From: Xanthomonas sp. DAR 35659
GTDB lineage: Bacteria > Pseudomonadota > Gammaproteobacteria > Xanthomonadales > Xanthomonadaceae
Length of the DNA: 64,000 nt
Reading direction: 5' to 3'
Assembly: GCF_041242975.1 (NCBI RefSeq)
Contig: NZ_CP162488.1
Coordinates: forward strand, 2,036,001 to 2,100,000
The position numbers and the translations under genes are program-made. Shown here piece by piece: positions 52,697 through 54,541 of the stretch; the stretch's first letter is position 1; the number at the start of each line of letters is the position of its first letter. Below the pieces are notes generated by a model. The model did not search any database and was not told the origin of the DNA. It saw nothing but the letters and a program-made list of their open reading frames with translations.

Positions 52697-52868
52697 GCTG
52701 GTCGCGTTGTCTGCAAGCGGCCACCCGGGCGTGTCCGCAGTCGCTGTGGGAGCGACTTCAGTCGCGACGAACGCAGCGGTGGGAATCCAGGCTTCGGAAG
52801 CTGTCGGGGCTGAAGTCCCTCCCACAGTGCAACCGGCCGGCGACCCGAATTTTTGTAGGAGTCAACTG

Positions 52869-53792
52869 TCATGCAGCAGCGATGGCGGGAGGCGTGTAAG
52901 GGCCCTGATCGCGGGCAATGGCGTTGAGCCAGCGCAGGTACTTGTGCATGCAGGCGACGATGGCGACCTTGGCCGGTTTGCCGGCCGCTTGCAGGCGCGC
53001 ATAGGTTTGGGCCAAGGGGGATTTGGCGCGGATGCTGGCCCAGGTGGCCATGTACAGCGCGCGGCGCACGTCGCTGCGCCCGCCTTTGATGCGGCGCTGG
53101 CCTTGCCAGCGGCCGCTGTCGTGATTGAACGGTGCCAGCCTGACCAGGGCAGCCAGCTTGCGCGGCGGCAGCGTTCCCAGTTCCGGCAGACGTGCGGCCA
53201 GGGTGGCGCGCAGGATGGGCCCCAGCCCCGGCACTTTGGGCAGGGTCGAACATGCGTCGGCCCGCTGCTGGAGGTCTCGCTTCAGCGCATCGCTCTGCCG
53301 CTTCAGCAGGTCGATCGCTTCCTGGCAGTGGCGCCGCACCTCCGGGCTGGTGATGTGCTCCAAACGCCGCCGGAGGGCGTCGTGCTGGCCGACCAGGGCG
53401 TTGCGCAGATCCAGCAGTTCGCGCAGGTGCTGCAGGTGCTCGGGCAACACGTCCGTCGGGGTGGCCGCAATGGCTTGGGCGGCAACAGCCAACAGGCGCG
53501 CGTCCAGGGCATCGGTCTTGGCCTTGATGCCCAGCGCCTTGGCCAGCGCACGCGGGCGCTGCGCGCACATCCGCACCGCCGGCAAGTCGGCCTGGCGCAA
53601 CGTCCGCAGCACCTCATGTTCGTAGCCACCGCTGGCTTCCAGCACGATCCGTTCGCACTCCAGCCTCGCCAGACGCTGGACCAGTTCACTCCGCCCTTGT
53701 GCCGTGTTGGGCTGGGTCCAGGCCAGTCCGTCCGGCAGCACATGAATGACCAGTTCGGCCTTGGCAACATCGATCCCGACAAAGCGCCGCAT
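52869..53792 (-). CDS. IS110-family DEDD recombinase (transposase)
   Basis: The 307-residue protein has an N-terminal RuvC-like DEDD domain: MRRFVGIDVAKAELVIHVLP, IVLEASGGYEHEVLRTL and KTDALDARLLAVAAQ carry the acidic residues. A coiled-coil region (about 125-180) follows, then a C-terminal Tnp domain with VPGLGPILRATLAARLPELG and LVRLAPFNHDSGRWQGQRRIKGGRSDVRRALYMA, where the Ser of DSG is the presumed nucleophile. ATG 53792 follows GGAGA. It appears full-length. In this family it acts with an element-encoded bridge RNA that selects both the donor and target sites. Confidence 0.95.
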   Translation of the reverse strand: MRRFVGIDVAKAELVIHVLPDGLAWTQPNTAQGRSELVQRLARLECERIVLEASGGYEHEVLRTLRQADLPAVRMCAQRPRALAKALGIKAKTDALDARLLAVAAQAIAATPTDVLPEHLQHLRELLDLRNALVGQHDALRRRLEHITSPEVRRHCQEAIDLLKRQSDALKRDLQQRADACSTLPKVPGLGPILRATLAARLPELGTLPPRKLAALVRLAPFNHDSGRWQGQRRIKGGRSDVRRALYMATWASIRAKSPLAQTYARLQAAGKPAKVAIVACMHKYLRWLNAIARDQGPYTPPAIAAA

Positions 53793-53819
53793 AGACGTTC
53801 TCCGCAGTAGACTTAGGGT

Positions 53820-53995
53820 CGAGAGCGCTCCTGCCAATGCCCAGGCTTGTGATGTTCGAGCTCCCGGCTCAGGCAACTGTTCGGGCTTGTCAGGCAGGAG
53901 AACCGGGGTGCGGCGGCGCTGACTCCTACTCGTGCTCGCTTGGCACTGCGGCTTAACGGCCTGCCGCACCCCGCTCTCACCTTCAACGATAGACC
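53820..53995 (-). ncRNA. Predicted bridge RNA of the IS110 element
   Basis: Read on the minus strand, the 5' non-coding region folds into two large stem-loops. Loop 1 is closed by CGGGGTGCGGC/GCCGCACCCCG (53973-53963 with 53914-53904). It carries AAGCCGC (within 53956-53948), an inner hairpin GTGC/GCAC, then GTAGGAG (53929-53923). Loop 2 is closed by CTCCTGCC/GGCAGGAG (53900-53893 with 53835-53828). It carries ACAGTTGCCT (53880-53871), an inner hairpin GAGC/GCTC, then CACAAG (53851-53846). Loop 1 guides match the REP target AAGCCG-CT-CCTAC. Loop 2 guides match the element ends ACAGTTGA-CT and CTTGTG. The order target loop then donor loop is that of the IS621 bridge RNA. RNA ends are approximate. 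Confidence 0.75.
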
Positions 53996-54541
53996 CTCTT
54001 TTGACACAAGCGGTTTCAACCGCGACGAGCGCAGCGGTGCAGTTTCCGACTTCGGACAGCGTCGCGGCTGAAGCCGCTCCTACAGTGCACCCGGCAGTCA
54101 TCGCAGTGCCGTTGTGGGAGCGACTTCAGTCGCGACGAGCATCCAGGCTTCGGAAGCTGTCGAGGCTGAAGCCCATTCCACCGTGCATCCGGCCGCCAAC
54201 CCGAATTTTTTGTAGGAGCGGTTTCAACCGCGACGAGCGCAGCTGTGGAGTTCCCGGCTTCGGACAGCGTCGCGGCTGAAGCCGCTCCTACAGTGCACCC
54301 GGCAGTCATCGCAGTGCCGTTGTGGGAGCGACTTCAGTCGCGACGAGCATCCAGGCTTCGGAAGCTGTCGAGGCTGAAGCCCATCCCACCGTGCATCCGG
54401 CTGGCGACCCGAATTTTTTGTAGGAGCGGTTTCAACCGCGACGAGCGCAGCGGTGTAGTTTCCGGCTTCGGACAGCGTCGCGGCTGAAGCCGCTCCTACA
54501 GTGCATTCGGTCGGCGATCCGATGACGCGCTTGGAGCGGTT

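What the first reader, a model, noticed from the sequence alone, without database searches (positions are those of the whole stretch)
53820..54010. IS110 element encodes a readable bridge RNA whose guides match its REP target and its own ends
The 5' non-coding part of the element shows two stem-loops in the order seen for IS621 bridge RNA. Loop 1 carries AAGCCGC and GTAGGAG, complementary to the two sides of the target AAGCCG-CT-CCTAC. Loop 2 carries ACAGTTGCCT (9 of 10 matches to ACAGTTGACT across the right end and core) and CACAAG (reverse complement of the left end CTTGTG). A CT dinucleotide sits at both junctions, as with the IS621 core. Bridge RNAs of IS110 elements are established knowledge; this one and its REP specificity were read directly from the sequence.
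Basis: partly seen in the sequence, partly recalled or inferred. Interest (0 to 1): 0.88.

Follow-up and report, generated by a model that had tools for sequence, protein, structure and literature searches.

The report
Xanthomonas jumping gene with guide RNA
A small bacterial jumping gene carries a readable guide RNA that matches the repeated DNA it jumps into and its own ends; this is a new, well-supported example of a known mechanism, and the same stretch matches an orphan catalogued small RNA read from the opposite strand.

Summary
The finding holds. Window 54010-52862 (minus strand) is a 1,149-bp IS110-group element in a Xanthomonas genome. The genome has 10 copies, all at one position of a REP: AAGCCG|CT|CCTAC in nine, AAACCG|CT|CCTAC in the window copy. 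Its 216-nt 5' non-coding end folds into two guide-bearing stem-loops in IS621 order. Guides fit targets across relatives: 22 distinct combinations match at 270 of 308 positions against a permuted mean of 206.8 (0 of 20,000 permutations reach it). The left guide's third base predicts the target base: U-guides sit at T-targets in 6 of 13 copies, C-guides in 0 of 49. Joining the element's ends creates TTGACT-17-TATCGT, absent when integrated. It is a new member of a known kind, a bridge-RNA IS110 element.

In 20 Xanthomonas genomes, 44 of 44 sX15 matches lie antisense at the 5' end of an IS110 transposase gene. With published antisense RNAs over IS110-family 5'UTRs in two Pseudomonas species, this suggests that bridge RNAs have antisense partners. 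That is a hypothesis; no expression data were examined.

The parts
52862..54010 (-). Whole IS110 element, 1,149 bp counting one CT core
   Evidence: Same ends and length in 10 of 10 genome copies; a matching uninterrupted REP unit at this place in relative G003 (L180)
54009..54010 (-). Left CT core
   Evidence: Multi-copy boundary
52860..52861 (-). Right CT core
   Evidence: Multi-copy boundary
54011..54026 (-). Left REP flank GTCGCGGTTGAAACCG (left target)
   Evidence: Sequence; GTCGCGG..GAAGCCG or close variants in the other nine copies
52853..52859 (-). Right REP flank CCTACAA (right target)
   Evidence: Sequence
53793..54008 (-). 5' non-coding end (LE) holding the bridge RNA
   Evidence: Between core and start codon; 216 nt in all 10 copies
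53905..53972 (-). Stem-loop 1, target-binding loop
   Evidence: Predicted fold, consensus fold of relatives, inverted repeat I6
53948..53954 (-). Left target guide AAGCCGC
   Evidence: Match at a near-constant offset and covariation with target
53923..53929 (-). Right target guide GTAGGAG
   Evidence: Reverse complement of CTCCTAC; in G019 the guide is GTGGGAG and the flank CTCCCAC
53828..53900 (-). Stem-loop 2, donor-binding loop
   Evidence: Predicted fold, consensus fold of relatives
53871..53880 (-). Left donor guide ACAGTTGCCT (right end reads ACAGTTGACT)
   Evidence: 9 of 10 match; reads ACGGTTA where the right end is ACGGTTA (G027a, G090, G069)
53846..53851 (-). Right donor guide CACAAG (left end reads CTTGTG)
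   Evidence: reads GATAAG in 5 of 6 types whose left end is CTTATG (G205 reads GCTAAG)
53973..53978 (-). GAGAGC, 5' arm of the stem that closes both loops
   Evidence: present in all 24 types of the alignment
53821..53826 (-). GCTCTC, 3' arm of the closing stem
   Evidence: (some types read ATCTCTC or ATCTCTG)
53986..53991 (-). -10-like TATCGT used by the circle-junction promoter
   Evidence: 17 nt from TTGACT only when right and left ends are joined; 9 of 12 consensus in the circle, 6 of 12 at best when integrated
52860..52865 (-). -35-like TTGACT of the circle-junction promoter (right end plus core)
52869..53792 (-). Transposase/recombinase, 307 aa; DEDD residues D8, E52, D94, D97 and serine S226
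   Evidence: PF01548 and PF02371 over cut-off; phmmer to IS621 8wt6 E 8e-19 and ISCro4 9t56 E 1.1e-19 with catalytic motifs aligned; residue numbers
53818..53986 (+). Match to Rfam sX15 (RF02234) on the opposite strand, across the bridge RNA
   Evidence: 45.7 bits, E 8.2e-6, below the gathering score of 55; other family members reach 152 bits
53808..53813 (+). Candidate -10 box TAGACT of the antisense RNA (inferred)
   Evidence: TANNNT at this place in 25 of 30 element types, counted by eye; the strict promoter scan finds none

Best explanation
This is an IS110-group insertion sequence whose 5' non-coding end encodes a bridge RNA. The element excises as a circle; joining its right and left ends builds a promoter (TTGACT-17-TATCGT) that drives a transcript of about 160-180 nt starting just 5' of the first stem-loop. 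Loop 1 pairs with the two strands of a REP at AAGCCG-CT-CCTAC. Loop 2 pairs with the element's joined ends, ACAGTTGA-CT-TGTG. The DEDD/serine recombinase exchanges strands at the shared CT. The left guide tolerates wobble, so related elements use overlapping but shifted sets of REPs. Shown here: element limits, target site, guide-target covariation, predicted fold, catalytic motifs, junction promoter sequence. Inferred: transcription and its start and length, RNA-protein binding, the circle and the strand-exchange steps (from IS621). A likely extra layer, inferred: an antisense RNA (sX15) covers the bridge RNA.
For: 10 of 10 copies at one REP position with constant 1,149-bp length. A matching uninterrupted REP unit at the window locus in relative G003. 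Of 62 Xanthomonas copies, U-guides (AAGTCG) sit at T-targets in 6 of 13 and C-guides in 0 of 49 (Fisher 2.8e-5). In G003, 4 of 6 copies sit at AAGTCG although intact AAGTCGCTCCTAC is 8 of 243 such sites there (binomial 1.7e-5). G019 changes right guide and right target together. Relatives in attC-like sites carry TAACGC/TAACAC and AATTCAG/AACTCAG guides that fit those sites. Guide windows at set offsets against own and swapped targets, 28 types in 22 distinct combinations: 270 of 308 strict matches, permuted mean 206.8, 0 of 20,000; left and right guides alone also 0 of 20,000. Junction promoter. Recombinase homology. The same scan on E. coli IS621 ranked CT ends 1,279 bp apart first.
Against: No transcript was seen or sought in reads. 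The one G154 copy has left target GGCGCG against guide CGGTCG. B-type left guides read TAGCCGC against AAGCCGC, losing one pair. G017, G014 and G015 (U-guide) sit at C-targets in 6 of 7, explainable only by wobble. The permutation result is carried mostly by the REP/attC split: within REP types it is weaker (17 of 20,000 strict; right guide alone 1,824 of 20,000) and within attC types absent (3,298 of 20,000). Related types are not independent. G132, G019 and G101 donor guides and G069 and G101 target guides did not beat shuffles at 5%. The junction promoter is not recognisable in the distant types (7 of 12 in G018 and G154, 6 or less in G161, the attC types, G027a, G090, G069, Xarb and G101).
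Confidence: 0.94

Rival explanations
1. The functional product of the region is not a bridge RNA but a leader/antisense pair that controls transposase translation, as proposed for ISPpu9 (Asr9); the REP choice is made by the protein.
For: sX15 lies antisense over the region in 44 of 44 Xanthomonas matches. Asr9 raises transposase translation and transposition in P. putida (PMC8450116, abstract and sections 16 and 24 read).
Against: It does not explain why loop letters track target letters among related elements, nor the donor-guide matches. Both roles can coexist.
Confidence: 0.04
2. The loop motifs are REP fragments trapped in the element by chance and play no part.
For: The host carries 444 intact AAGCCGCTCCTAC sites, so REP-like letters are common in its genome.
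Against: The two guides are split, in opposite sense and at near-constant offsets; the same offsets carry attC letters in elements that sit in attC-like sites; shuffles rarely give them.
Confidence: 0.02

Closest known systems
IS621 of E. coli and its bridge RNA (Durrant 2024, PMC11208160; Hiraizumi 2024, PMC11208158)
   Same: CT core, REP target, 5' non-coding end with target loop before donor loop, guides on both sides of each loop, promoter rebuilt at the circle junction, DEDD plus serine recombinase
   Different: Recombinase only distantly alike (phmmer E 8e-19); 1,149 bp against 1,279 bp; different REP letters; a GAGAGC/GCTCTC stem closes both loops here; Xanthomonas host
ISPpu9 of Pseudomonas putida (PMC8450116)
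   Same: Element in REPs with a dinucleotide repeat (AG, the complement of CT), long structured 5'UTR, RNA antisense to that UTR
   Different: ISPpu9 copies can carry a second sense RNA (Ssr9) after the transposase; the window element has a single bridge region; ISPpu9 letters were not held or compared here
Rfam sX15 (RF02234), Xanthomonadaceae sRNA
   Same: Covers this region end to end (model 1-159), opposite strand; 152.3 bits in L164 and 149.6 in X. arboricola L023
   Different: Catalogued as an sRNA without mention of IS110 in the Rfam line; the window element scores below the family cut-off (45.7 against 55)
Second IS110 lineage of the same genome (L001-L005)
   Same: REP target, CT core, guides that resemble the target; IS621-like ends (GACGGTATCT, CTTGTAT)
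   Different: Inserts 3 bp further into the same REP (AAGCCGCTC|CT|ACA); 30% identical transposase
Nearest relative in a named plasmid record: Xanthomonas sacchari NZ_CP010410.1
   Same: 76% identical transposase, annotated 'IS110 family transposase'
   Different: Only the protein match was seen; its ends and guides were not read

Membership tests
IS110 insertion sequences (IS110 group) | DEDD RuvC-like N-terminal domain (PF01548) and serine-bearing C-terminal domain (PF02371) | tested here: met
   Both Pfam models over cut-off; D8, E52, D94, D97, S226 aligned with IS621 motifs
IS110 insertion sequences (IS110 group) | Longer non-coding region upstream of the transposase gene and no subterminal inverted repeats (the reverse of IS1111; PMC11187229, passages read) | tested here: met
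   216 nt upstream, 7 nt between stop codon and right core; none of 9 inverted repeats of 10 nt or more joins the two ends
IS110 insertion sequences (IS110 group) | Site-specific insertion with a core dinucleotide at both ends | tested here: met
   10 of 10 copies; matching uninterrupted REP unit in L180
IS110 insertion sequences (IS110 group) | Circular intermediate | not testable with these tools
   Only the promoter formed by joining the ends was seen
Bridge RNA | Two loops in order target, donor, with split guides that match target and ends | tested here: met
Bridge RNA | Guides covary with target DNA | tested here: met
Bridge RNA | Guides covary with donor DNA (own ends) | tested here: inconclusive
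   Ends are nearly invariant inside Xanthomonas; ends and guides shift together only in a few distant types; no permutation test was made for donors
Bridge RNA | RNA is transcribed and bound by the recombinase | not testable with these tools
   No reads or binding data
Rfam sX15 | Reaches the family's gathering score | tested here: not met
   45.7 bits against 55 for the window element; met in L164, L023, L133 and L067
Rfam sX15 | RNA made from the strand opposite to the transposase | not testable with these tools
   Strand rests on the Rfam model; the report I recall as its source (10.1093/nar/gkr904) is not held

The most novel reading that the evidence does not exclude
Bridge-RNA elements carry a second, antisense RNA as a standard part. 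sX15 (Xanthomonadaceae), Asr9 (ISPpu9, P. putida) and SPA0004-8/SPA0066 (six IS110-family copies, P. aeruginosa PAO1) would be one class of 'anti-bridge' RNAs that pair with the bridge RNA along both guide loops and set how much usable guide RNA, and how much recombinase, an integrated copy yields. On this view Ssr9 of ISPpu9, which follows a right-end/left-end junction after tnp, is itself a bridge RNA, and orphan ssr9 copies are bridge-RNA-only units.
Probability: 0.4. Interest if true: 0.72.

Novelty: new member of a known kind. Interest (0 to 1): 0.52.

Why it matters
It adds a multi-copy, naturally tested IS110 clade whose guides can be read against dozens of real insertions, including a natural single-base guide change that goes with a shift in target choice. 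It also gives an orphan Rfam family a probable identity, and it makes a specific regulatory idea testable: that bridge RNAs are opposed by antisense RNAs.

Tried and rejected
First permutation test (16 combinations, 211 of 224, permuted mean 143.5, 0 of 100,000; REP only 287, attC only 25,162 of 100,000) is not used as main evidence: there the right guides were picked with a pattern modelled on the targets, and left-guide offsets were set after seeing the alignment. One search repeats it with the same offset ranges (left 52-56, right 74-83) for own and swapped targets, 28 of 30 types (G005 and G027b lack a readable right end).

Free scan (500 shuffles each; the 2000 in its printed header is wrong): target guides beat shuffles at 5% in 26 of 28 types, donor guides in 25 of 28. 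But in nine types (G009b, G017, G014, G015, G154, G161, Xarb, G027a, G101) the best or first-tied left match was not at the guide position, so it is weak support.

Strand test by G-U against A-C cells in helices: inconclusive. In pairs shared by the sense and antisense consensus folds of 24 types there are 46 G-U and 26 A-C cells (16 and 10 distinct states); consensus energies are near equal in the pooled set (-97.7 and -97.0), favour sense in the G018-like set and antisense in the attC set.

Antisense promoter: the strict sigma-70 scan of 53650-54100 found none, and no terminator. TANNNT in 25 of 30 types, by eye, is only suggestive; G019, G027a, G027b, G090 and G069 lack it.

sX15 is not found at every element of this clade: G010 (11 transposase matches) has no sX15 match at E 0.001 and G009 has 1 for 8. 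The 44 of 44 check used transposase rows that I picked.

Solo bridge RNAs: in this genome the 16 bridge regions found by DNA search lie at the 10 + 6 transposase copies already listed. Of 15 fetched sX15 loci in the family (L164-L178), 14 had transposase hits in the stretch; the 15th (L175) shows only a short start-like remnant by eye. Other sX15 rows were not checked one by one.

IS1111 membership: rejected. L143 was dropped (no left end found). The many decayed G019 fragments were not used.

Print check: sX15 appears in one held paper, in a table of Rfam names. Searches for bridge RNA/IS110/REP, Asr9/antisense RNA/IS110, ISPpu9/bridge RNA and Xanthomonas/IS110/REP (listings read, each showing only part of its hits) showed no title or abstract start joining sX15 or Asr9 to bridge RNAs; PMC11208160 mentions the ISPpu9 small RNAs only as regulators of the recombinase. 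Subscription papers and preprints are mostly not held, so this is weak evidence of absence.

Full report
What is there. The minus strand of 54010-52862 is an IS110-group insertion sequence: CT core, 216 nt of non-coding DNA, a 307-aa recombinase gene (53792-52869) and a very short right end. The protein has both IS110 domains and aligns with the IS621 and ISCro4 chains, with the DEDD and serine motifs in register (residue roles from passages of PMC11208158). The host is a Xanthomonas: genome G015 of the same genus set shares contig length and insertion flanks with Xanthomonas sp. AmX2.

Limits and target. The genome has 21 PF01548 hits: 10 copies of this element (A), 6 of a 78-79% identical one (B), and 5 of a distant lineage. 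All 10 A copies are 1,149 bp and sit in GTCGCGG..GAAGCCG|CT|CCTACA or close variants. The window copy has GTTGAAACCG on the left. At the same place between the SulP-like transporter gene and the nth-like gene (named by eye from the translations), relative G003 has a uninterrupted unit GTCGCGGTTGAAACCGCTCCTACAAAAA, printed on the other strand. The array is repetitive, and the window itself keeps intact units of the same form near 54211 and 54420, so strict one-to-one identity of the empty site is likely, not proven. In 14 relatives read there, the gap between the two genes is 274-871 bases by alignment ends, too short for the element. The genome still holds 444 intact AAGCCGCTCCTAC sites; the reversed control pattern has 0.

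Guides. To go beyond one element I read 90 copies of 30 types: 62 in Xanthomonas and 28 elsewhere in the family or in X. arboricola L023. For 28 types with both ends, in 22 distinct combinations, each element's guide windows (left offsets 52-56, right 74-83 from the left core) were scored against its own and against swapped targets. Own targets score 270 of 308 strict (277 with wobble as half), against permuted means of 206.8 and 218.8; 0 of 20,000 permutations reach the observed value, also for the left or the right guide alone. Within REP types 17 of 20,000 (strict) reach it, with the right guide alone not significant (1,824); within attC types 3,298 do, so that subset says nothing. Related types are not independent, so these are not clean probabilities.

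A natural single-base test. The third base left of the core is C in the guides of 49 Xanthomonas copies and U in 13. T-targets occur in 0 of 49 and 6 of 13 (Fisher 2.8e-5). In G003, 4 of 6 insertions are at AAGTCG and one more at GAGTCG, although only 8 of the 243 intact sites of the two forms counted there have AAGTCG. Wobble would explain why U-guides also use C-targets. In G132 (guide U) 4 of 4 targets have T; in G161 (guide G) 2 of 2 have G; in G154 the single copy does not fit. G019 has guide GTGGGAG and flank CTCCCAC; one G003 copy (L105) also has CTCCCAC with an unchanged guide.

Promoter at the junction. Joined, the right and left ends give TTGACT-17-TATCGT (9 of 12 consensus) in 12 of 13 A-like Xanthomonas types and 8 of 12 in the 13th (G015). 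With the REP flank in place of the right end the best score is 5 or 6. In the distant types the junction is weaker or not recognisable, except G132 with 9 of 12. The arrangement is the one reported for IS621 (PMC11208160, section 5 read).

Control. The same scan on IS621 from E. coli (L199) put first the CT pair at 358 and 1637, 1,279 bp apart, with left guide match 6 of 7 and right 6 of 7. I recall 1,279 bp as the IS621 length; it comes from no call. Rfam shows no match up to E = 1 on the IS621 bridge RNA stretch (L199 372-556; coordinates from PMC11806352, passages read), so its models would not have flagged a bridge RNA as such.

sX15. Rfam's sX15 matches 53818-53986 on the plus strand. Across 20 Xanthomonas genomes there are 44 matches in 11 genomes. 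All 44 lie within -3 to 35 nt of the 5' end of an IS110 transposase match on the opposite strand. Not all elements of the clade match it (G010 none, G009 1 of 8). Across 198 family genomes 35 have matches, up to 152 bits. L164 and X. arboricola L023 score 152.3 and 149.6, again antisense. Published antisense RNAs over IS110-family 5'UTRs exist in P. putida (Asr9; PMC8450116, abstract, sections 16 and 24 read) and in P. aeruginosa (SPA0004-8, SPA0066, 899 reads, not checked by Northern; PMC3349714, passages read). I infer that sX15 is an RNA antisense to this clade's bridge RNA. I saw no expression data and could not read the original report. From section 16 of PMC8450116 I also infer that Ssr9, which follows a junction of the 'B' and 'A' end boxes after tnp, is a bridge RNA; this is my reading, not the paper's.

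Verdict. A real and well-supported bridge-RNA IS110 element, REP-specific; a new member of a known kind. The sX15 link is the part a specialist would not expect.

Noticed in passing
L133, L149, L150, L134, L135, L138, L139, L155, L141: IS110 relatives (about 40% identical) sit in integron attC-like sites (TAAC[GA]C|CT|GA[AG]TT, followed by GTTAGGC in several), with guides that fit them. The name attC is my recognition of the motif and comes from no call.
   Followed up: partly
L001-L005, L111-L124: A second, IS621-like IS110 lineage hits the same REP at a CT 3 bp further in (AAG[CT]CGCTC|CT|ACA) in 19 of 19 copies read, with guide-like TCGCTCC and TGTAG. In 16 of those 19 the target match did not beat shuffles at 5%.
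   Followed up: partly
G019: 29 transposase matches, most of them fragments, as if the elements expanded and then eroded there.
   Followed up: no
L177: A copy in which the donor loop runs straight into the last part of the transposase, so most of the gene is deleted.
   Followed up: no
window:54012-54540: REP units in tandem between the element and the nth-like gene; 14 relatives read have REP-like units at this place in gaps of different lengths and without this element.
   Followed up: partly
L137, L151-L154, L142, L158: A clade (about 39% identical) with ends ACGGTTA|CT and CTTGTATG and loose left targets (CTCAG shared on the right), apparently less site-specific.
   Followed up: no
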